A stretch of 64,000 nt of DNA from Vulcanimicrobiota bacterium (GTDB lineage: Bacteria > Vulcanimicrobiota > Vulcanimicrobiia > Vulcanimicrobiales > Vulcanimicrobiaceae). The notes beneath the pieces were generated by a model that was not told where the DNA came from, did not search any database, and saw only the letters and a program-made list of their open reading frames with translations. The number at the start of each line of letters is the position of its first letter. Within the stretch, counting starts at the first letter, position 1. Of the stretch, positions 655-11,879 are shown in pieces. A program made the position numbers and the translations under genes. Location: assembly GCA_019235995.1 (NCBI GenBank), contig JAFAJV010000108.1, positions 1 to 64,000 on the forward strand. Direction: 5' to 3'.

Positions 655-1677
655 CTACTCGGTTTGGCGCGATTGCGAGCGCTCGAGAGCCTCGACACGA
701 TCAAACAGCTTTGGCAGCTTGCGAATCATGACCTGTCGCCGCAGTTCCTCGTGATGATCGTTCGCCGGATTTCCCGAGATCGTCGCGCCGTCCTCGACGT
801 TTCCCCAGATGCCCGATCCTCCCGCGATCGTCACGCCGGAACCGACGGTGATGTGCCCTCGGAATCCCACCTGACCCCCGACCTTTACGTAGTCGCCGAT
901 CACGGTCGACCCCGCGAGCCCGGTCAACGCCGCTATGACGCAGTGCTTTCCGATGCGGCAATTGTGGCCTACCTGGACGAGGTTGTCGATCTTCGTACCG
1001 GCGCCCACGCGCGTGCTTCCGATCTGGGCGCGATCGATGCACGAGTTCGCGCCGATCTCGACGTCGTCTTCGAGCACGACGTTACCGATCTGCGGAATTC
1101 GCTCGGCGCGCCCTTCCGCGAACGCCCAGCCGAAGCCGTCGCTGCCGATGACGCTTCCGACATGCAGCACGACCCGATCTCCGACGGTGCAGCCGGAGAG
1201 CAGTTTGGCGTGAGGGTGGATCCGCACGCCGGCGCCGATCGTGACGCGCTCGCCGACGTACGCGCCGGCGCCCACGACGCTCCCGGCACCGATAGTGACG
1301 GCGCTGCCGACGTATGCGCCCGCTCCGATATAGACGTCCTCCGCGATGGCGGCGTCGGACTCGATCACGGCGCTGGGGTGGCGAAACGGGCCGCGCGGCT
1401 GCTCGGGTGCGAGCATATCGAGCGCCCGAGACAGGGCGAGCCGAACGTTCTCGACGACGATCAGCGGCTTGCCTGCGTCGCGCGCGAGCTCGGCGTCCAC
1501 CAGAACCGCAGCGGCCGGCCCCGCGAGGGCCGCGGAAAAATACGCATCCGTGGTGGCGAACGTCAGTGCGCCGGGCCGCGCGTCATCGACGGTTGTGAAC
1601 CCGGTGATCTCCATGCTGCCGTCACCGACGACGCGTCCGCCGATCCGCGCGGCGAGCTCCTGCAGCGTTGCCAGCAT
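655..1677 (-). CDS. lpxD: LpxD, UDP-3-O-acylglucosamine N-acyltransferase
   Basis: Adds the second acyl chain to UDP-3-O-acyl-glucosamine using acyl-ACP; third step of lipid A synthesis. The protein has 340 aa, normal for the family. Residues 1-100 form the uridine-binding domain (TTVDDARPGALTF). From about 105 to 295 there is a left-handed beta-helix of hexapeptide repeats (IGAGAYVGSAVTIGAG). DGFGWAFAEG and IPQIGNVVLEDDVEIGA are LpxD signatures. The catalytic His is H238 in VGHNCRIG. A C-terminal helix (RKLPKLFDRVEALE) ends the protein. It follows the OmpH-like lipoprotein gene by 18 nt. Confidence 0.96.
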   Translation of the reverse strand: MLATLQELAARIGGRVVGDGSMEITGFTTVDDARPGALTFATTDAYFSAALAGPAAAVLVDAELARDAGKPLIVVENVRLALSRALDMLAPEQPRGPFRHPSAVIESDAAIAEDVYIGAGAYVGSAVTIGAGSVVGAGAYVGERVTIGAGVRIHPHAKLLSGCTVGDRVVLHVGSVIGSDGFGWAFAEGRAERIPQIGNVVLEDDVEIGANSCIDRAQIGSTRVGAGTKIDNLVQVGHNCRIGKHCVIAALTGLAGSTVIGDYVKVGGQVGFRGHITVGSGVTIAGGSGIWGNVEDGATISGNPANDHHEELRRQVMIRKLPKLFDRVEALERSQSRQTE

Positions 1678-1695: not shown

Positions 1696-2103
1696 CTACG
1701 TGCCCGGCGTGGGCGAGGCCTTTTCCGTGATGTTGAGCGCCTTCTCGACGTCGCTCGTGATATCGACGCCGCCGTAGCCGATGCCCTCGCGCGTCACGAC
1801 CAGCTTGAGCTGGCGCTGCTGCGCGATTCTCCCTGCCGCGTCGCGAAGCTGCGCGGAGAGCTGGTCGGTGACCTTAGCGTACTTCCGTTGCAGAGCGAAG
1901 GCGTCGCGCTGCTTGCGCGCGTTGCTCTCGCGGCGCGACGAAACGGAGCGCTCTTCCGAAAACATCTGGTTTTGATAGCCCTGATACTCCGGCCAGTTCG
2001 ATACGATGCGCTGCACGTCGACGAGGCCGATCGAGCTGTGCGGCGCGCAGCTCGCCAGCGTCGCCGCGAGGAAGAGAAGTGCGGAGCTATTTTGCTTTTT
2101 CAC
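1696..2103 (-). CDS. OmpH/Skp-like small lipoprotein
   Basis: 135 aa with a GTG start that overlaps the upstream stop (GTGA). The N-terminus is a lipoprotein signal: a hydrophobic stretch followed by the lipobox LASC, with the acylated Cys at 19. The middle (about 45-95) is charged and helical, as in Skp-family chaperone arms. The end carries the Skp core strand motif LVVTREGIGYGGVDITSDV. Skp proteins carry unfolded beta-barrel proteins across the periplasm to BamA. A lipid anchor here suggests a membrane-tethered version. It is the third OmpH-like gene in a row between bamA and lpxD. Confidence 0.8.
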   Translation of the reverse strand: MKKQNSSALLFLAATLASCAPHSSIGLVDVQRIVSNWPEYQGYQNQMFSEERSVSSRRESNARKQRDAFALQRKYAKVTDQLSAQLRDAAGRIAQQRQLKLVVTREGIGYGGVDITSDVEKALNITEKASPTPGT

Positions 2104-3392
2104 TCGTGTTGGCTTTCGACGTCCTTGATGACTTGGTTGGTGAGGTCATAGCCGCCCGCGGCGGTGTCGATGTTGACGAAGACGATACTGAAGCCGCGGT
2201 CCTGTGCGATGCGAGCGGCATCCCGCTGGACCTGTGCGACGATCTGTCCGTAGAGGTCGCCGCGCCGCTTCTGAAGCGAGCGCAATTCCTTGCCGGCCGC
2301 TCCCGTCGCCCCTACGTCCGCGCCGTGCATGGCCGCGAACTGCCGGTCCAGATCGCTCTTGGTTTCGTTGTATTCCTGGATCGTCTTTCTCGCGTCCGCC
2401 TGGAACTGACCGACGAACTGCCGGTGAATCGCGGCGATCTGAGCCTGCAACCCGGGCGAGAGATTCGGGGGAGTCGCCGCGGGAAGGCTGCGCAGCTGCG
2501 CGGTCACCTCGTTGCGGTGCTCCTCGAGCTTGGCCTGCGTCTGGCTCTGGATGGCGCCGACTTGGGAGCGCATCGCGGCTCCGGTCTCGCTGTCGAGCTG
2601 CGCCCGATAGGCGCGCAGCGTCGCGGCGTCCGCGTTGCGCTGGGCCGCGACCGCGCCGGCCTCGCGCGCGTTGATCGCGGCCAGCTGCGACTGAGCCTGC
2701 TTGCGCGCGGCGGGATCCATGGCGAGGTTGCCGAGACGCATCTTGATGGCGAGACGCTGCGTGGCGTCCTGCTGCGTCAGGCGCAACGATAGGTCCGTCT
2801 CGTTCTGCTGGAGTTGTTCGGCCTTGGCGCGATACTTCTGCTGCGCCTGGGCCTGCAGCTGACGGGCGATCGACGAGCTCGCCGCGTTGTCTTGGGCCAC
2901 GACGTTCTGCTGATACGCCTGGTAGTCGGCGTTAGCCGCCTGCGCGGCCTGCTGAGCCTGCACTGCCGACTGATTGCTCATCTGCGTCGCCGCGAGCGCA
3001 CCTTGCCCGCGGATGCCGGCGGCCGCCAACGCCGCTCGCACCGCCTGATTCTCGCGGCTTTCGTAGTCGCGCTGCTTCTGCGCCAAGATCTTGTTCGCGC
3101 GAATCTGCGCGTCGCGCAGCTCGCGATTGAGCTCGGCCGTCTGCGCCGCCATCTGCCGCGCGCCGAGCGGAACCTGCGGGCCGGTGTAGCGCAGCGCGAT
3201 GGCCGCGATGGCGTCGTCGAGCTGCGACAGCTGAGGGTAGAGCGGATCGTGCTTCACGGCGTCGTCGAGGCGCACGTAGCCCGTGCCGCGCACGGAGGCA
3301 GAGTGAACGTTCGGCGCGCAAGCCGCACATGCCAGGATCGCCGACGCACCGAGAAGAGCGAGCGCGCTACTTGCCGATCTCATTTTGGACAT
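2100..3392 (-). CDS. Long OmpH/Skp-like exported coiled-coil protein
   Basis: About 430 aa from the ATG at 3392; an ATG at 3383 is also possible. The longer frame from 3425 would overlap its neighbour by 59 nt. The signal peptide ends near ILACAACAP, so it could be a lipoprotein. Most of the length is Ala/Gln/Arg-rich helix predicted to form long coiled coils (QQAAQAANADYQAYQQ, KAEQLQQNETDLSLR). The C-terminal end AQDRGFSIVFVNIDTAAGG plus YDLTNQVIKDV matches the OmpH C-terminal motif. It is much longer than E. coli Skp (about 160 aa). A periplasmic chaperone or spacer role fits its position between bamA and lpxD. Confidence 0.75.
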   Translation of the reverse strand: MSKMRSASSALALLGASAILACAACAPNVHSASVRGTGYVRLDDAVKHDPLYPQLSQLDDAIAAIALRYTGPQVPLGARQMAAQTAELNRELRDAQIRANKILAQKQRDYESRENQAVRAALAAAGIRGQGALAATQMSNQSAVQAQQAAQAANADYQAYQQNVVAQDNAASSSIARQLQAQAQQKYRAKAEQLQQNETDLSLRLTQQDATQRLAIKMRLGNLAMDPAARKQAQSQLAAINAREAGAVAAQRNADAATLRAYRAQLDSETGAAMRSQVGAIQSQTQAKLEEHRNEVTAQLRSLPAATPPNLSPGLQAQIAAIHRQFVGQFQADARKTIQEYNETKSDLDRQFAAMHGADVGATGAAGKELRSLQKRRGDLYGQIVAQVQRDAARIAQDRGFSIVFVNIDTAAGGYDLTNQVIKDVESQHE

Positions 3393-4170
3393 CGGCCGTG
3401 ATGTCCGCACCCCCGTAGACGACATCGGCGCGATCGACGACGAGGATCAGCGACTTCTTCCGCGCGACGTCGGTCGTCGCGGCCTTCGTCTGCTCCACGA
3501 GCGGCTTGAGCAGCTGGTCCTGCTTGTCGGAGACGACCTTGTTGAAATCCTGGAGCACCTGGCGCTTGTCGGTGTCGCTGTGGGCCTGCGCCATCTTGGC
3601 GGCGTAGATCTGTCGCTGCGTCGTCTCGAACTGGTTCATCTGATTGTTGGCGCTCTGCACCTTGGGGACGCCGTCCAACACGTTCTGATCGACGAAGCCG
3701 ATCGCGGAGGGCGGCGGCGTGGCCGAGGGAGGCACGATCGCCTGCGAGCTCGAGAACACGGCCTCGACGTCCTTGGTGATGTCCTGGCCGCCGTAGATGA
3801 CGATGCGCTTGTCCACCACGATCGAGAGGCTTCGGGTGGCGCTCACGGCCGCGATCGCCAGCTGCGCGCGCTGGAAGAGCGGCCCGACGATTTCGCGCTG
3901 CCGGTCGTTGTATTGCTGTTGAAATTGCATCGCGAGCTGCTGCCGTTGGGCATCGTTGCGCGCGCGCTTCACCTGTGCGTTGAACTGCGCGTCGAGGCGT
4001 GCCTTATCCGCCGCGAGGGCGCTGTTCGCGTTGACGAAAACCGGCAGGTTCGCGAGGTCGGCCTGATCGATGTAGCCGACGTCGGTGAGGTCGGCCGCGA
4101 TGGCGCCGGGGGCCAACACGATCCCGAGCAGCAGCGCCGCGGAGACGATGATCGCAGACCGAAGTTTCAT
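3367..4170 (-). CDS. Tandem-duplicated OmpH/Skp-like periplasmic chaperone
   Basis: 267 aa with a clear signal peptide (LLLGIVLAPGAIAA, cleavage near 26). It contains two complete OmpH-like units. Unit 1 (about 27-137) opens DVGYIDQADL and ends SIVVDKRIVIYGGQDITKDV. Unit 2 (about 155-265) opens IGFVDQNVLDGVP and ends ILVVDRADVVYGGADITADV. A Pro/Ser linker (VPPSATPPPS) joins them. Skp works as a trimer, so a fused double unit may assemble differently. It is the first gene after bamA, the usual place for skp, and overlaps the next OmpH-like gene by about 26 nt. Confidence 0.85.
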   Translation of the reverse strand: MKLRSAIIVSAALLLGIVLAPGAIAADLTDVGYIDQADLANLPVFVNANSALAADKARLDAQFNAQVKRARNDAQRQQLAMQFQQQYNDRQREIVGPLFQRAQLAIAAVSATRSLSIVVDKRIVIYGGQDITKDVEAVFSSSQAIVPPSATPPPSAIGFVDQNVLDGVPKVQSANNQMNQFETTQRQIYAAKMAQAHSDTDKRQVLQDFNKVVSDKQDQLLKPLVEQTKAATTDVARKKSLILVVDRADVVYGGADITADVQNEIGK

Positions 4171-4212: not shown

Positions 4213-6471
4213 CTAGAAGCTTTGGCCGATTCCAAAGCTGGTGTGCGTACCGTTCACGCCCTTCGCGAAGTCGATTCGTACCGTGCGTAGGCCGAGCTGC
4301 GGCACGTCGAAGCGGATGCCGAAGCCGGCGTCTCCGTAGAGGGCCCAGTCCGCGGGGTACCCCGTGATGCGGTTCGTGTAGGGATTGAGCAGCGGATAGG
4401 CGCCGCGTATGTGATAGTCGAGCTCATCGACGAATAGGGCGAGCGTGATCCTCCGGTCGAGCGCGAGCGGCTGACGCAGTTCGATCTGCCCGAGATACGC
4501 ATTGGTCGCGTAGAACACCTGATTGTAGCCCCGCATCTGCTGATCGGAGAACGTAAAGAGCGAGCTCGGCGGTATCACGCCGGTCGAGTTGTACGCGGCG
4601 CCGTGGACGCCGAGCGTCGCGCTCCTCAGCACCGGAAAGAACTTCGCGAGATCGAGCGTGCTCTGGGTGAACGAGAAGTTCGATCCGATCGCCGGCTCGG
4701 AGACCGTCGCGCTCAGCAAGGCCTTGATGCCGTTGCGGGGGTTGAACGGATCGTCGAGCGTGATCGTCTGTAGATTCAGGCCGGCCGTGACCAGGTTGTA
4801 CGGATTGCCGGTGTTGACGTTGGCGATGGACGACGCCGCGATGCCGAATGAGCCGCCGTAGTTCTGCGGCGTCGAGCTGATCGGCCCGGGCGTCGGCCCG
4901 ACGAAGATGTTGGGCTGGTTCCCTTGGAAGTAATACGGCGAGGGCACCGTCGTGTTGTAGCGTATCTTCTGTCCGCTCAGGGCAAACGATAGGATCGTGT
5001 AGTCGCTCAAGCGCCGTCCGACGTTCCCCGACGCGCCCGTCGCGCTCGACGTGTTCGTGGCATAGGTGTTGGAGATTTGCTGTGAGTTCGAGCTGGGATA
5101 GAGCGTGACGGGGATCGGTATCGACCCGTGGCTTGCGACCGACTGCCCCGTGCCGAGGATGCTGTAGATCGGATAGTAATACGTCGTATGGTTCGTGAAA
5201 ATCGACGCGCCGGCCGTATACTTTTGGCCCTGCGGCGAATTGCTCAGGTACGGGGCCGACGCGGTGATCTGAGCCACGCCCGTTCGCGCGCCCTCCTCAA
5301 ACTGAATCCCGGCCGAATTGCCGGTGCCGTGCAGGTTATTGTCGGAGAATCCGAGGGTGCCGTACAGCCCCAGGCCGGTGAGGCCGCCGGAGTATCCGAA
5401 GCCCAGCGATGCCTGCGCGGTGCGCTGCTCCGTGACGTGCCAGACCAGCGTCACGTCCTGCGGCTTCTTCGGGTCGGGGCCCGGCTTGACGTCCGGCTCA
5501 ACCTTCGAGAAGTAGTTGAGGGCGTTGAGCCGTTCGTAGTCCCGCTTGATCGCGTCGGTGTTGAGCACCATGCCCGGGCGCTCGCGCAGCTCGCGGCGAA
5601 TCACGACGTCCTTCGTGCGAGTGTTGCCGGTGACTTCCACGACGGCGATGCGAGCGACGTAGATGTTGTAGCGGACCTCCGCCGTGCCCGCCTGCAGGTT
5701 GATCGACGACGGCACGATGCCGCCCTCGAAGTTTCCGACTTCGAGGTGAAAGTGGTCCTCGTACAGCTTCTGCAACGCCTTGTAGTCCGCGTCGCGGACG
5801 GCATCGGAATAGACGGTCCCGGCCTTCAGCGTGAGTGCCGGAAGAATCAGCGGGGGCGGGAGCAGCGGATCGCCACCGATGATGACGTGCGTGACGACGA
5901 GGCCCTCCTGGATCGTCAGCGTCAACACGCCGCTCTGGGGATTGATGTTCACGTCCTTGACGTGAGTCGGAACCTGGCCGCCGTATCCGATACGCTCGTA
6001 GTAGTTGTTGATCTTGAGCACATCTTGGCGAAACGTGTTCGTGTTGAACACCTGCCCGACCGACAGGTCCATCAGCGCCAGCAACGTGTCGCTCGGGACC
6101 TTCGCGTTGCCGGTGAAGAGGATCTTCGTCAGCACCGGGTTTTCGACGACGCGGTACGTGATCGCGATGCCGTTGGGGCGCTGGCGCACGAGCGGAGGCG
6201 CGATGTCGGCGAAGTAGCCGAGCGCGTTGATGCGCGCGAGGTCCTCCTGGACGACCTTCGGATTGTAGGGCTGGCCCGGCCGGGCCGCGATGACCGACAT
6301 GATCGTCTGCGTGGGCACGTGCAGGTTCCCGGTCACGTCGACCGAGACGATCCTGGGCGCCGTCGCCGAGAGCGCGGGAGCGGCTCCGAATCCGGCCGCC
6401 GCGACCAGCGGCAGAAGGATGCGCACGCACCATTTCAACGCGCCCAAACGCCGCGCGGGGTCAAAGGTCAT
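4213..6471 (-). CDS. bamA: BamA/Omp85 outer-membrane protein assembly factor
   Basis: Central barrel of the machine that inserts beta-barrel proteins into the outer membrane. 752 aa with a signal peptide (to about 36). Four POTRA repeats can be seen: about 40-110 (VSVDVTGNLHVPTQTI), 112-189 (ILFTGNAKVPSDTL), 191-273 and 274-350 (VVEVTGNTRTKDVVIRREL). That is one fewer than the five of E. coli BamA. From about 352 the Omp85 barrel begins (ASLGFGYSGGLTGLGLYG). MRGYNQ is in the place of the VRGF/Y loop motif, and the protein ends in Phe (GIGQSF). It lies directly upstream of the OmpH-like genes. Confidence 0.95.
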   Translation of the reverse strand: MTFDPARRLGALKWCVRILLPLVAAAGFGAAPALSATAPRIVSVDVTGNLHVPTQTIMSVIAARPGQPYNPKVVQEDLARINALGYFADIAPPLVRQRPNGIAITYRVVENPVLTKILFTGNAKVPSDTLLALMDLSVGQVFNTNTFRQDVLKINNYYERIGYGGQVPTHVKDVNINPQSGVLTLTIQEGLVVTHVIIGGDPLLPPPLILPALTLKAGTVYSDAVRDADYKALQKLYEDHFHLEVGNFEGGIVPSSINLQAGTAEVRYNIYVARIAVVEVTGNTRTKDVVIRRELRERPGMVLNTDAIKRDYERLNALNYFSKVEPDVKPGPDPKKPQDVTLVWHVTEQRTAQASLGFGYSGGLTGLGLYGTLGFSDNNLHGTGNSAGIQFEEGARTGVAQITASAPYLSNSPQGQKYTAGASIFTNHTTYYYPIYSILGTGQSVASHGSIPIPVTLYPSSNSQQISNTYATNTSSATGASGNVGRRLSDYTILSFALSGQKIRYNTTVPSPYYFQGNQPNIFVGPTPGPISSTPQNYGGSFGIAASSIANVNTGNPYNLVTAGLNLQTITLDDPFNPRNGIKALLSATVSEPAIGSNFSFTQSTLDLAKFFPVLRSATLGVHGAAYNSTGVIPPSSLFTFSDQQMRGYNQVFYATNAYLGQIELRQPLALDRRITLALFVDELDYHIRGAYPLLNPYTNRITGYPADWALYGDAGFGIRFDVPQLGLRTVRIDFAKGVNGTHTSFGIGQSF

Positions 6472-6638: not shown

Positions 6639-9600
6639 TTACCAGAAATAGCGCTGAACGGTAAGGCTGAAGCCGCTGTTACCGATCAGCGGCTGCGCCA
6701 CCGTGTAGCTGGCATTATACCCCACCGGCGACGTCGGCAGCTGCAAGAGCTTCGTGGGCCCACTCTGATAGAAGAAGTTGAGCGTGGCGCTTGTGACCGG
6801 ATTGGGTTGCACCATCAGGCCGAACGATTGCACCTGCGGCACCCCGAAGGTCACGGCATAGACGGCACTCACCGCCTTTCCGAGCAGGCGCGTGGCCGTG
6901 AATCCGACGTTGCCATAGTAGCCGAGCGTGAGGTTGACGCTCGAGAGCCCCAGGCCCTGACCGATCGTGCTCTCGACCGGGCCGAGGAGGCTCGCGGCGA
7001 ACTGGGCGTTGAGTATATTGAAGGCCTCCTGCCCGACGGTGATCGTGCTGCGCTGCGCGAGGTCCACGTTGGGAATGGGAGAGAGCGCGCCGAGCGGCGT
7101 GATGCCGCTGGGCTGGCGGGGAGCCAGCATCGACTGGCGGCTGAACGCGATCCCGTTGACGAAACCGCCGAACGGAGCGATCAATCCGAGGATCTCATCT
7201 CGCGTGTATCCCGGCGGATTCGAGGTGAGCCCGATCTTGAGCCCCGCAATCGGGCCGTCCACCGTGATCGTGATGTCCGCGCTGCCGTACGGATTACGGG
7301 CTCGATCCGGATCGGGGTTGACGACCGTGCTGCTCGCGACGGCGTGCAGCGTAGGCAAGACGCCGTCCGCCGCGTTGAAGCGCACCCCGCCCTGCTGCAC
7401 GCGAAAGGCCCGGTCGAAGTAGGTGAGCGTGCCGCCGGTGGAGGCGAAGGTACCATCGAGCGTCGGCGACGACAGGCTGCCGCCCAGATTCACCGAACCG
7501 CTGACGCCGATATCGAGCCCGGCACCGTAACCGCTGCCGCGGACGCGCACGTTCTTGCCGGCCGTGGCCCGCAGGTCGAAAGCGAGCGGCAAAGGCGGCA
7601 GACCGGGCGAGGACGCCCCCTGCGCCGCTTTGACGAACGTCGCGAACGGCAGCGTCGCATTGCTCAGCGTAGCGTCCCCGGCTAGGAGCGCCGCGGTCCC
7701 CGACTTCTTGTCGAGGGTGAGGCGAGCGTCGAGCGTGCCGCTGCCGTATGCCGGGAGGTCGAGCTGCGCACCGCGCGCGACGCCGGCGAAGTGCAGCGAC
7801 GAGGTGCCGCCGCTGAAACCGTTGGGGAAGGCGACGCGCCCCGAGAGTTGCGCCGTCCCGCTGCCGAGCCTCGCGCTCAGCCGGTCGATCGAGCCCGAAA
7901 CCCGGTTGAAGGAAAGCGCTGCGGCGAGTTGCGTGATGGGCACGCGCTCGAGCGCACTAAAATAGGATCCGCGCGCAAGCGAAAGCCGGCCGACGATCGA
8001 CGGCCGCCGCACGGTCCCTGAGAGACCGATATGGCCGTCGATGAGACCGCTCATCTTCGTGTTCTGGCCGAGCGTTTCGTCGAAGACCGCGGGGTCCAGA
8101 CCGACGACGTCGAGATCGAAGCTCATCGGTTGATCGGGCGGCAGCCGCAGCGGTGCGAGCGAGAGCGGCAGCGCGCCGGCCAGCGTCACCTCGCCGCGGC
8201 CGAGCGTCGCGCCCGCATTCGACAGTACGAGCGCATGACGCTGCAGTCTAAACTCGCCGAACAGCGACGCGATCGAAATTCCATACGCGCGAACGCCGGT
8301 ACCGTCGACGCCGGCAAGGAACGTCGGCGCTCGGTAGGTGCCAGCGATGCTCAGCGTCGATTCGAACGATCCGCTGATCGGAACGCGGACTCGCGAGACG
8401 TCGTAGACGAGCTTGGCAAGGCGATCCGTCGCCGCATGCACGTGAATGTCGAGTGGGTCGTTGCGGCGCAAGCCGAAGCTGCCGGCGGCGGAGGCCGCGA
8501 TCTCGGGAGTCGTGAGCTCGGCTCGATCCACCACGATTCGCCGGCCGGCGGCGTGCAACGCGACGCTCGCGCTGTCCAGCGTGAGCGGCCCGAGCGTACC
8601 GTCGCGCACGTGCGCGTTTGCGCGAACGTCCAGCAGCGGAAAACGCCCCCGGATCGTCGCATCGCCCGAGACTCGGCCCGTGATGGGGACGCTCTGCATG
8701 CCAAGCGCCGGCATCCACAGCGACAGATCGAGATTCCCCACGTCGCCGCGCAGGTCGAAGCGAGAGCGCGTCAGCGTCGATTGCCAGTCCGCCTGTGGGC
8801 TCAGCGCGATCGTGCCGCGCGCGCGCAGCATGCCCTCGCTTCCGCCTACGGCGAGCGCGCCGGTGACCGCGTTGCGCGCGCTCGACCACACCGCGCGCGT
8901 GTCGCCGATCGGGAGATTGCGGTAGCGAAAGCCGCGCACGTCCAGGTCTCCGCTCGAGGTGACCCGGCCGCCCTGCGACGCAGCCGCGAGCTTGACGGCG
9001 CCGCGTCCCGCGAGCGTGTCGCCGGTGTCGAAGAAATTATTGAAGTCCGACAGGGTCGCGTGAGGCGCGCGCAGATCGATCGCACTCTGATTTGGCCGGG
9101 CCACGGCCGAGAAGCCTGCGGCGGTCGTCCCGACCAGCACGGAGCCGCGCCGAACGCTCACGCCGCTCGGATCCGCTGCTAGCAACACGCTGCCGTCGAT
9201 GAACGGCAGGCCGTTGATCTCGCCCGCGGGAACGCCGACGTGCCCGGTGATGCGCGGTCGCGCGCTGCGACCCGCGATGTGCAGCTGAGCGTTGAACGTG
9301 CCGTCGGTCTTGTAGTTCGGTATGCCGAACTGGCGCAGCGCCGGCGCCACGCGAGCGGCGGGAACGTCCGCGTCGAGATCATACGAAGGCGCTCCCGACT
9401 GCAGCGATCCGATGCTCCCGTCGATGCGCGCGTTCGCGCCGCCGAAGGCACCGACGACGCGCCGTAACGCGACCGAGTCTCCCGACAAGTTCACGCTGCC
9501 GTCGCCGGCGATCGAGAAGTTTGCGACGCGTCCCGCGCCGATCGTGACGCCGCCGTCGAATCGTGGGAGCGCTGCGCCCGCCGCCAGGTTACCGGTTGCC

Positions 9601-11879
9601 GAAAGCGTCCCCGCGGTCAAGGGTAAGCCGATGCCGCTCAGCTGCTTCGCGCTCAATCGGTTTGCGACCAGCGAGAGCGCGCCTGGGTTCGCACCGCCGG
9701 TTTGCGGCGCGGCCAGCGAGAAGTTACCGGCGGCGACAATTTCGCCACCCGCGGCGCGAGCTTCGGCCGACAATATCCGCAGCCGATCGCCTTCGACGGC
9801 GAGCGTCAGGTTTGCGTGCGTCACCGGGACGCCGCGCAGCGTCGCGCGCTGCATCGCCAGGTCCGTTCCCTGCACCACGATGCGCTGCGGCTCGATCGCG
9901 ACGCCGACGGTGCCCCGCAGCGCTCCGTGCGCGACGATCGCGCTGCCCAAGAATGGCTGCAGCCCTTCGAACGTCCCGCGATACGCGCCGTACGCGACGA
10001 AGCGCTGGGTCGAAAAGAGGCCGTCGCCCGCGAACTCGCCCCACGGACCCGACGCCCGAAGCGAATTGATCGCCGTGCTTTGCAGCGTGCCGCCAAACGT
10101 CGCGGCGAGTCGATCGAAGCGAACGCCGGAAATGGTTGTGTCGCTTCCGCCGACGCTGCCCGCCATCGAGACGTGACTGCCCGAGCCGCCGCCCGCGAGC
10201 GTCATCCCGACCGCCCGTCCGTCGATCGGCGGCATTGCGGGCAACGACAGGCCGGGGAACGTAGGAAGACTCGGTGCGCGCATCCGCAGGTTGCGCGCGA
10301 CCAGCCAGAAGGCGCTGCTGTCGTGGGGCCGATCCAACGCGTACGCGCCGTCGAAATCGCCGCGCTCGGTGTGCAGCCAGAACGGCTCGACGCTCGCCGT
10401 GCCGTCCGGGTTCATCGCGAAGAGCGCGGCGACGCGCCGCACGCCGCGCGCGGACGCGGCGCTCCCCTCGACTCCGAAGAGCAGGTCGCGTCCCACGGCC
10501 GACGCGTCGATCGCGATCGGCTCGTCGCCGAGCATCTCGTCGAGATACGGCAGACGACTCGCCGGGCCGGCGACGTGCAGGGCGAACCGCGAGAGCACGT
10601 GCGGGCCGATCCCGAGCGTGCCGCGCACGCCGATCGCCACGCCGGCGTAACGGGCGCGCAGCGGCGCGAGCGCTACGACGTTGGAGTGATACACCACGCC
10701 GGCGTCGAGAGCGTCGAAGGGCATCGAGCGATAGAAGGTGTGCGGCGCGTTCACGCGCGCAACGATCACCGGATCGCCGATCGGCCCGTGGACGAGCACG
10801 CCTACGTGTGCCCTGCCCGAGATCGCCTGATCGCGCGCGAACGCAAACGCGCGGCGCAGCCCGGAGAGGTCGCCCGATCCCTCGACGCCGAGACGAAGCT
10901 GCGCGCCGCCGGTCAGCGCTCCCGTCAGGTCGTAGCCGCCGCCCGTGATGCGCAGCGGAATTCCGGCGAGCATCGCGTCCGCGCGGCTCACGTAGAAGGT
11001 GTCGTCGACGAGCTCGAGGCGTCCGCGGAGCCGTTCGATCGGCGCGTCGAGCGCCGCCAGAGCGAGCCGTCCGTCGCGTACGTCGACGCCGAGACTGACG
11101 TGATATGACGGATCGACGTTCGGCGCGACGCCGAGAGCGTACACGCGGGCGTCGAAATTCTCAGCCGTAGCCTGCAGGATGCGCACCTGCGGCGTCTGCG
11201 CGAAGTAGTTTGCCAGGCCCGGCAGCGGGAAGCGCGTCGCGTGCGCGTGATGGATCGCGTAGCCGCGAAGCGCGTCCACCGTGCCGGCGATCGTGAACGG
11301 CTCGCGGGACTGCTGCTCGAACGCGCCGCGCACGCGATAGCGGGTGACGGCCGCGGTGTCCACGTCGGCGTCGGCGTCGATGCCGCCGGCGCGAATGACC
11401 TTCGCGCTCGGATCGTACGCCGACGGCTCGCGAAGCTCCAGCTGCGCGTCGCGCACCGTCACGTGCAGGCGCCACGGAACGGGATTGATGCGCGTGGCGT
11501 GCGGGATCACCGGTGAGCCCTTCGGCAAGCTCAGGGTGAAGCTGCCGTCGGGAAAGCGCGTCAGCGTGAGCCGCACCCCAACGAGGTCGAGCCCGAGGAT
11601 GCCCATGCGATGCGCGCTGCCGGGCAACAGATCGCGCGGCGAGTAGCGAATCGCGACGCGCGCGGCGCTCAGGACCGGAAGCGATCCGCGACTCACGCGC
11701 AGGTCGTAAAACGCGGCGCCGTCTCGCGCGACGCGCACGTCTCCGATTCGGACGTCCAAGCCCGTCGCTAACCTGGCGCCTTCTTGGATCGAAGCGCGTA
11801 ACAACGCGTGGCGGTTCGCGGCCACCAAGCCCAGGACGACCGCCGCGGCCAGGAGGGCCATCGCGACGCGAGTGCGCAC
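6639..11879 (-). CDS. tamB: TamB-like translocation and assembly / lipid-transport protein
   Basis: 1746 aa with a GTG start. An AGGAGG lies about 11 nt upstream, and an in-frame ATG is 6 codons later. One N-terminal membrane anchor (MALLAAAVVLGLVA) is followed by a very long run of beta-rich AsmA/TamB-like repeats. The last 350 or so residues form the conserved TamB (DUF490) domain: GTFASTGGTLTYFDRAFRVQ, ADITITVDGPIAGLKIGL, NPPGYTRDEILGLIAPFGG. TamB-type proteins span the periplasm as hydrophobic grooves. They assist outer-membrane assembly and phospholipid transport. The gene lies upstream of bamA across 167 nt that hold nothing I recognise. Confidence 0.92.
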   Translation of the reverse strand: MRTRVAMALLAAAVVLGLVAANRHALLRASIQEGARLATGLDVRIGDVRVARDGAAFYDLRVSRGSLPVLSAARVAIRYSPRDLLPGSAHRMGILGLDLVGVRLTLTRFPDGSFTLSLPKGSPVIPHATRINPVPWRLHVTVRDAQLELREPSAYDPSAKVIRAGGIDADADVDTAAVTRYRVRGAFEQQSREPFTIAGTVDALRGYAIHHAHATRFPLPGLANYFAQTPQVRILQATAENFDARVYALGVAPNVDPSYHVSLGVDVRDGRLALAALDAPIERLRGRLELVDDTFYVSRADAMLAGIPLRITGGGYDLTGALTGGAQLRLGVEGSGDLSGLRRAFAFARDQAISGRAHVGVLVHGPIGDPVIVARVNAPHTFYRSMPFDALDAGVVYHSNVVALAPLRARYAGVAIGVRGTLGIGPHVLSRFALHVAGPASRLPYLDEMLGDEPIAIDASAVGRDLLFGVEGSAASARGVRRVAALFAMNPDGTASVEPFWLHTERGDFDGAYALDRPHDSSAFWLVARNLRMRAPSLPTFPGLSLPAMPPIDGRAVGMTLAGGGSGSHVSMAGSVGGSDTTISGVRFDRLAATFGGTLQSTAINSLRASGPWGEFAGDGLFSTQRFVAYGAYRGTFEGLQPFLGSAIVAHGALRGTVGVAIEPQRIVVQGTDLAMQRATLRGVPVTHANLTLAVEGDRLRILSAEARAAGGEIVAAGNFSLAAPQTGGANPGALSLVANRLSAKQLSGIGLPLTAGTLSATGNLAAGAALPRFDGGVTIGAGRVANFSIAGDGSVNLSGDSVALRRVVGAFGGANARIDGSIGSLQSGAPSYDLDADVPAARVAPALRQFGIPNYKTDGTFNAQLHIAGRSARPRITGHVGVPAGEINGLPFIDGSVLLAADPSGVSVRRGSVLVGTTAAGFSAVARPNQSAIDLRAPHATLSDFNNFFDTGDTLAGRGAVKLAAASQGGRVTSSGDLDVRGFRYRNLPIGDTRAVWSSARNAVTGALAVGGSEGMLRARGTIALSPQADWQSTLTRSRFDLRGDVGNLDLSLWMPALGMQSVPITGRVSGDATIRGRFPLLDVRANAHVRDGTLGPLTLDSASVALHAAGRRIVVDRAELTTPEIAASAAGSFGLRRNDPLDIHVHAATDRLAKLVYDVSRVRVPISGSFESTLSIAGTYRAPTFLAGVDGTGVRAYGISIASLFGEFRLQRHALVLSNAGATLGRGEVTLAGALPLSLAPLRLPPDQPMSFDLDVVGLDPAVFDETLGQNTKMSGLIDGHIGLSGTVRRPSIVGRLSLARGSYFSALERVPITQLAAALSFNRVSGSIDRLSARLGSGTAQLSGRVAFPNGFSGGTSSLHFAGVARGAQLDLPAYGSGTLDARLTLDKKSGTAALLAGDATLSNATLPFATFVKAAQGASSPGLPPLPLAFDLRATAGKNVRVRGSGYGAGLDIGVSGSVNLGGSLSSPTLDGTFASTGGTLTYFDRAFRVQQGGVRFNAADGVLPTLHAVASSTVVNPDPDRARNPYGSADITITVDGPIAGLKIGLTSNPPGYTRDEILGLIAPFGGFVNGIAFSRQSMLAPRQPSGITPLGALSPIPNVDLAQRSTITVGQEAFNILNAQFAASLLGPVESTIGQGLGLSSVNLTLGYYGNVGFTATRLLGKAVSAVYAVTFGVPQVQSFGLMVQPNPVTSATLNFFYQSGPTKLLQLPTSPVGYNASYTVAQPLIGNSGFSLTVQRYFW

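What the first reader, a model, noticed from the sequence alone, without database searches (positions are those of the whole stretch)
1696..4170. Four Skp/OmpH-like units in three consecutive genes, one a tandem fusion and one a lipoprotein
Between bamA and lpxD most diderms have one skp. Here there is a double-unit protein (two YGGxDIT-DV motifs), a 430-residue coiled-coil version and a 135-residue lipoprotein with lipobox LASC. They keep a recognisable C-terminal strand motif, YGGxDIT in three units and GGYDLTNQV in the fourth. A set of chaperones of different length and tethering suggests division of labour in feeding the four-POTRA BamA.
Basis: partly seen in the sequence, partly recalled or inferred. 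Interest (0 to 1): 0.6.

Follow-up and report, generated by a model that had tools for sequence, protein, structure and literature searches.

The report
Phylum-wide set of Skp-like chaperones
Next to the gene for the outer-membrane protein inserter BamA, a whole little-known bacterial phylum carries three linked genes encoding four Skp-type chaperone units (a fused pair, a giant long-armed lipoprotein and a short lipoprotein), and one lineage has merged the pair and the giant into a single three-unit protein, which suggests that they assemble as mixed trimers instead of the plain homotrimers known from E. coli.

Summary
On the minus strand lie bamA, D (two tandem OmpH/Skp units, secreted), L (430 aa, Skp body elements at both ends with about 350 residues of coiled coil between), S (short Skp lipoprotein) and lpxD. 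All four units match Pfam OmpH, and they are the genome's only OmpH hits; L alone is below the curated cut-off. AlphaFold gives D two complete Skp protomers (pLDDT 90.5); Foldseek's best hits are all Skp structures. The set is not local. The order tamB-bamA-D-L-S-lpxD recurs across Ca. Eremiobacterota/Vulcanimicrobiota (WPS-2): 143 of 148 sampled genomes hit, and the other five are explained. New evidence on mechanism: two genomes carry a natural D-L fusion, giving three Skp units in one chain. E. coli Skp works only as a trimer, and its key interface residue (A108) stays small in all four unit types. The best reading is that D is a two-thirds body completed by L or S (2+1 mixed trimers). Homotrimers, or a structural BAM accessory role, are not excluded. 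Division of labour is plausible but untested. New variant of a known kind.

The parts
3367..4170 (-). D: secreted tandem protein with two Skp/OmpH units joined by a Pro-rich linker (IVPPSATPPPS); signal peptide, no lipobox
   Evidence: OmpH 59 bits, two stretches; Skp 1u2m E 3.4e-4; AF2 pLDDT 90.5, two protomers; Foldseek best hits all Skp; lipobox in only 4 of 133 D homologues of the class
3754..4092 (-). D unit 1 (YGGQDIT motif)
3379..3702 (-). D unit 2 (YGGADIT motif)
2100..3392 (-). L: long Skp-type lipoprotein; beta1 (GYVRLDD) at the N-end, beta2, GGYDLT and last helix at the C-end, about 350 residues of coiled coil between
   Evidence: OmpH 24 bits, below cut-off; solved OmpH chains, E about 0.02; AF2 pLDDT 82, pTM 0.52; lipobox 110 of 115; profile match to D, E 2e-8
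1696..2103 (-). S: short single-unit Skp lipoprotein (lipobox LASC, YGGVDIT); GTG start overlaps the L stop (GTGA)
   Evidence: OmpH 39.6 bits; start-stop overlap of this kind in 116 of 143 loci; lipobox 122 of 127
4213..6471 (-). bamA (context)
655..1677 (-). lpxD (context)
6639..11879 (-). tamB-like gene (context)

Best explanation
The three genes encode a Skp-family holdase system for outer-membrane proteins, built from four Skp protomer units in one translationally coupled operon with bamA. Shown: all units are Skp/OmpH-type; D folds as two complete protomers in one chain (model); L is a single divergent protomer with greatly lengthened arms and a lipid anchor; S is a single lipid-anchored protomer; the set and its order are conserved across the phylum. 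Inferred: because a Skp body needs three protomers, D supplies two-thirds of a body and is completed by one unit from L or from S (2+1). The result is mixed trimers that are anchored to the membrane and carry one odd arm, very long (D+L) or short (D+S). These would capture unfolded barrels in the periplasm and hold them at the membrane near BamA. Which membrane the lipid anchors sit in, and the clients, are unknown.
For: Phylum-wide conservation of 2+1+1 units and gene order. D modelled as two Skp protomers with a short linker, best structural hits all Skp. Natural fusion of D and L into one three-unit chain directly after bamA in G006 and G010, 51% identical to each other: N-part matches D of a relative in the same family (E 6e-12) and the D profile (hhalign 96.8%), C-part matches L of that relative (E 9e-15). 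E. coli Skp is active only as a trimer, monomers are disordered, and A108R abolishes the trimer (PMC7577714). The A108 position is A/G/S in 94-100% of D1, D2, S and L; the A103 position is Ala in most D1 and S but mostly Glu/Gln/Asp in L, which suits L less to a homotrimer. After controlling for BamA and LpxD distances, D co-varies with L (0.32) and with S (0.42), but L and S do not co-vary (0.00). L stop and S start overlap in 116 of 143 loci.
Against: No complex was modelled or measured; the predictor gives single chains only. The fusion is known in two genomes of one genus, where units 1 and 2 have nearly lost their arms and S was not found, so it may be a derived special case. The match of its C-part to the class-level L profile alone is weak. 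The D-L partial correlation is unstable under subsampling (0.28, sd 0.15), and such correlations are indirect. S and D keep interfaces that could equally form homotrimers. Four units do not divide evenly into trimers of equal copies.
Confidence: 0.5

Rival explanations
1. Three independent chaperones: D forms double-bodied assemblies with itself, L and S form ordinary homotrimers, and each serves different clients or places.
For: S and both D units keep trimer-interface residues. Bacteroidota have two Skp paralogues in one operon with non-interchangeable roles, SkpA as a trimer (PMC10994853). Tethering differs between D and L/S.
Against: D-L natural fusion. The A103 position is acidic or polar in most L. 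D co-varies with both L and S while L and S do not co-vary.
Confidence: 0.3
2. The Skp scaffold has been recruited as a structural accessory of BamA, a membrane-anchored bridge or scaffold, not a client holdase; the long arm of L would be the working part.
For: No BamD (YfiO) found in the five genomes of this class tested. In the fused protein the arms of D units are nearly gone and only the long arm remains. L distances co-vary most strongly with BamA (partial 0.50). SkpA is a structural part of the T9SS translocon (PMC10994853).
Against: Absence of BamD by one Pfam model can be divergence. D keeps ordinary Skp-type arms in nearly all genomes. L and BamA distances may correlate because both are long proteins measured with little noise.
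Confidence: 0.17
3. Chance or local duplication of no lasting importance, or a misassembly in one metagenome-assembled genome.
For: The window comes from a fragmented assembly (154 contigs).
Against: The same order in dozens of independent assemblies across all families sampled, including a single-contig genome (G008).
Confidence: 0.01

Closest known systems
E. coli Skp (OmpH, HLP-1; PDB 1SG2, 1U2M)
   Same: Fold of each unit, gene position between bamA and lpxD, conserved A108-position small residue, exported to the periplasm.
   Different: Skp is one soluble 141-residue protomer forming a homotrimer. Here there are four units in three proteins: one a covalent pair with shorter arms, one with greatly lengthened arms, two of three lipid-anchored.
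Bacteroidota SkpA and SkpB (SkpA in the type 9 translocon, PDB 8GL8)
   Same: More than one Skp gene in one operon; among the best Foldseek matches for D.
   Different: SkpA is a separate homotrimeric protein with a C-terminal extension; no tandem fusion, lengthened arms or lipoprotein forms are described in the passages read. The gene set here is beside bamA, and no type 9 system was looked for.
Caulobacter CC_1914 OmpH-like protein (PDB 4KQT) and solved OmpH chains 9NHX, 9YJT, 9YJU
   Same: OmpH/Skp fold; weak matches to D by structure and to the L C-end by sequence.
   Different: Single-unit proteins of 146-169 residues.

Membership tests
Skp/OmpH (PF03938), protein D | Match above the curated Pfam cut-off | tested here: met
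   59 bits vs 32.4, two stretches
Skp/OmpH (PF03938), protein D | Skp protomer topology: strand, two-helix arm, strands, C-terminal helix | tested here: met
   AF2 pLDDT 90.5, topology present twice; Foldseek best seven hits are all Skp/OmpH
Skp/OmpH (PF03938), protein S | Match above the curated Pfam cut-off | tested here: met
   39.6 bits vs 32.4
Skp/OmpH (PF03938), protein S | Skp protomer fold | not tested
Skp/OmpH (PF03938), protein L | Match above the curated Pfam cut-off | tested here: not met
   24 bits vs 32.4, E 4.7e-5; L is therefore called Skp-related, not filed as a plain OmpH member, though its profile matches D (E 2e-8)
Skp/OmpH (PF03938), protein L | Skp protomer topology | tested here: inconclusive
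   Strand at residues 2-5, strand 368-371 and last helix 383-392 are in place, but pTM is 0.52 and the top Foldseek hits are generic coiled coils, with Skp chains at probability 0.6-0.8
Skp/OmpH | Small residue at the trimer-interface position A108 | tested here: met
   A/G/S in 99% D1, 100% D2, 94% S, 97% L; role of A108 from PMC7577714
Skp/OmpH | Functional homotrimer with central client cavity | not testable with these tools
   No multimer prediction or biochemistry available
Skp/OmpH | Strongly basic protein (E. coli Skp pI 9.5) | tested here: inconclusive
   Median pI: D unit 1 9.6, D unit 2 8.1, L 8.8, S 8.2; window D 5.9, L 9.3, S 9.6
Skp/OmpH | Soluble periplasmic protein | tested here: not met
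   Met for D in this class, not for L and S, which carry lipoboxes
Bacteroidota SkpA/SkpB | Operon and partner proteins of the type 9 translocon | not tested
   Only the gene neighbourhood tamB-bamA-lpxD was examined

The most novel reading that the evidence does not exclude
The phylum assembles an asymmetric, covalently pre-paired Skp body (D) whose third protomer is exchangeable: L gives a lipid-anchored complex with a single arm that could reach 20-25 nm, enough to bridge much of the periplasm to BamA, and S gives a compact anchored holdase. In one genus the D+L complex has become a single chain with one arm only. That would be the first mixed, anchored Skp machine and a way of turning a diffusing jellyfish chaperone into a fixed conveyor.
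Probability: 0.25. Interest if true: 0.75.

Novelty: new variant of a known kind. Interest (0 to 1): 0.57.

Why it matters
Skp is known almost only as a soluble homotrimer from Proteobacteria, whose assembly is coupled to folding. A phylum in which two protomers are permanently linked and the others are lipid-anchored offers a natural test of how many arms, and which arms, a Skp needs, and of whether Skp can act fixed to a membrane beside BamA. The three-unit fusion turns the stoichiometry question into one that a single expressed protein, or one multimer prediction, can answer. The set is also a conserved marker of outer-membrane assembly in Ca. Eremiobacterota, on which the papers found here say little.

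Tried and rejected
Misassembly or a local duplication: rejected by the survey. Real absence of Skp in five genomes without an OmpH hit: rejected for G006 and G010 (divergent D-L fusion) and not supported for G102, G142 and G146, which also lack any Omp85 hit and are incomplete. A control survey in Proteobacteria could not be run, because only genome handles can be a centre. First distance-correlation run discarded because the LpxD set was mixed with LpxA, repeated with a corrected set. Literature on tandem, mixed or lipoprotein Skp forms: nothing relevant found in this library. Tree of units: L forms one group and D1+D2 another, but these splits are weakly supported (0.56-0.79), so the order of duplications is left open. 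Other-phylum occurrence of tandem Skp could not be excluded: the single genome-collection scan returned only its best 80 loci, nearly all titled as this phylum or as unnamed bacteria.

Full report
WHAT IS THERE. On the minus strand of the window run tamB (11879-6639), bamA (6471-4213), D (4170-3367), L (3392-2100), S (2103-1696) and lpxD (1677-655). D carries two OmpH/Skp units, L one, S one. Pfam OmpH scores are 59 bits for D (two stretches), 39.6 for S and 24 for L (cut-off 32.4). A six-frame search of the whole genome finds these four units and no other. L and S share a GTGA stop-start overlap in the window, and the same kind of overlap is found in 116 of 143 loci, so the two are probably translationally coupled.

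HOW WIDESPREAD. The window's relatives are named Candidatus Eremiobacterota or Vulcanimicrobiota (WPS-2). Of 148 genomes sampled across the phylum (16 families, 70 genera), 143 have OmpH hits, most with four units. I fetched 79 loci from this sample and 80 named loci (many are the same contigs). Practically every locus that is not cut by a contig end shows tamB-bamA-D-L-S-lpxD or bamA-D-L-S-lpxD; some distant families have two S genes. D mature length is about 240, L about 400, S about 110 residues.

TETHERING. In the window's class a lipobox is present in 110 of 115 L and 122 of 127 S but only 4 of 133 D (many loci are counted from both fetches). In other classes D is itself often a lipoprotein or appears to keep an N-terminal membrane helix.

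STRUCTURE. AlphaFold2 on D with 62 sequences: pLDDT 90.5, pTM 0.69, two successive Skp protomers, each arm made of helices of about 26 and 40 residues. Foldseek against the PDB: the first seven matches are all Skp or OmpH structures (1SG2, 8GL8 SkpA, 1U2M, 4KQT), probability 0.96-1.00, E 0.008-0.18. By sequence the D profile finds 1U2M and 1SG2 at E 3-5e-4. L with 57 sequences: pLDDT 82, pTM 0.52; strand at residues 2-5, strand 368-371 and last helix 383-392, with helices 43-89, 104-173, 192-266 and 278-320 between. This reads as a Skp protomer whose arm has been lengthened several-fold; if straight it would reach roughly 20-25 nm (inference from residue counts, not shown). Foldseek for L gives mostly generic coiled coils, with Skp chains at probability 0.6-0.8.

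TRIMER LOGIC. E. coli Skp monomers are disordered and inactive, only the trimer works, only monomer and trimer were seen, and A108R or V117P abolish trimers (PMC7577714). The A108 position is Ala/Gly/Ser in 99% of D1, 100% of D2, 94% of S and 97% of L; the A103 position is Ala in most D1 and S but Glu, Gln or Asp in most L. A two-unit chain cannot close a three-unit body alone: it needs a third unit, or it must join bodies across chains.

THE NATURAL FUSION. Two of the five genomes without an OmpH hit (G006, G010; 97-98% complete) have a hit with the D profile directly after bamA. There a single 532/556-residue frame holds two reduced D units followed by an L-type unit. Its N-part matches D of a third genome of that family at E 6e-12 and the D profile at 96.8% probability; its C-part matches the separate L of that genome at E 9e-15, but the class-level L profile only weakly. 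The two fused proteins are 51% identical, so the fused frame has stayed open through much divergence. S was not found in either genome. Fusion of two otherwise separate neighbours is a classical sign that the products work together, and the sum here is exactly three units. The D units of the fusion have almost lost their arms, so in this genus only the long arm remains; this may be a derived case.

CO-VARIATION. On 52 non-redundant loci, partial correlations of pairwise distances, given the other proteins, are D-L 0.32, D-S 0.42, L-S 0.00, D-BamA 0.01 and L-BamA 0.50. This fits D as shared partner of L and of S. It is indirect, and D-L is unstable under subsampling (mean 0.28, sd 0.15).

BEST READING AND RIVALS. 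I favour mixed 2+1 trimers, D with L or D with S (0.5), over three independent homo-oligomeric chaperones (0.3) and a structural BAM accessory (0.17). BamD was not detected in five genomes of the class and one SurA-like protein is present in each, so the set may carry more of the chaperone load here than Skp does in E. coli (inference). Precedent for several Skp paralogues in one operon with different roles exists in Bacteroidota (PMC10994853).

NOVELTY. The fold and role are known; the tandem fusion, the long-armed lipoprotein, the short lipoprotein and the three-unit chain, conserved across a phylum, were not found in the papers searched. I could not survey other phyla for tandem Skp, so uniqueness is not claimed.

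Noticed in passing
L208:5630-7225 and L209:8209-9876 (genomes G006, G010): Natural D-L fusion with an N-terminal membrane helix and nearly armless first two units, directly after bamA; S not detected and lpxD located elsewhere in the genome.
   Followed up: yes
G000, G008, G022, G032, G053 (whole genomes): No BamD (YfiO, PF13525) hit in the five genomes of the window's class tested, while one SurA-like N-terminal domain is found in each.
   Followed up: partly
L098, L099, L101, L103-L109: Some distant families carry two S-type lipoproteins after L instead of one, giving five Skp units.
   Followed up: partly
L101-L108 (family f15 and relatives): D appears to have an uncleaved N-terminal membrane helix with a cytoplasmic tail instead of a cleavable signal.
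   Followed up: no
L165, L183, L194 (records titled Rhodospirillales, Proteobacteria, Solirubrobacterales): Public metagenome-assembled genomes with other names carry this gene set; contigs of the same length as those of L165 and L183 belong to genomes that the phylum survey places with the window, so the titles look wrong.
   Followed up: partly
G017, G027 (family f13): No LpxD N-terminal domain (PF04613) found in two near-complete genomes although hexapeptide acyltransferase-like genes follow the Skp set.
   Followed up: no
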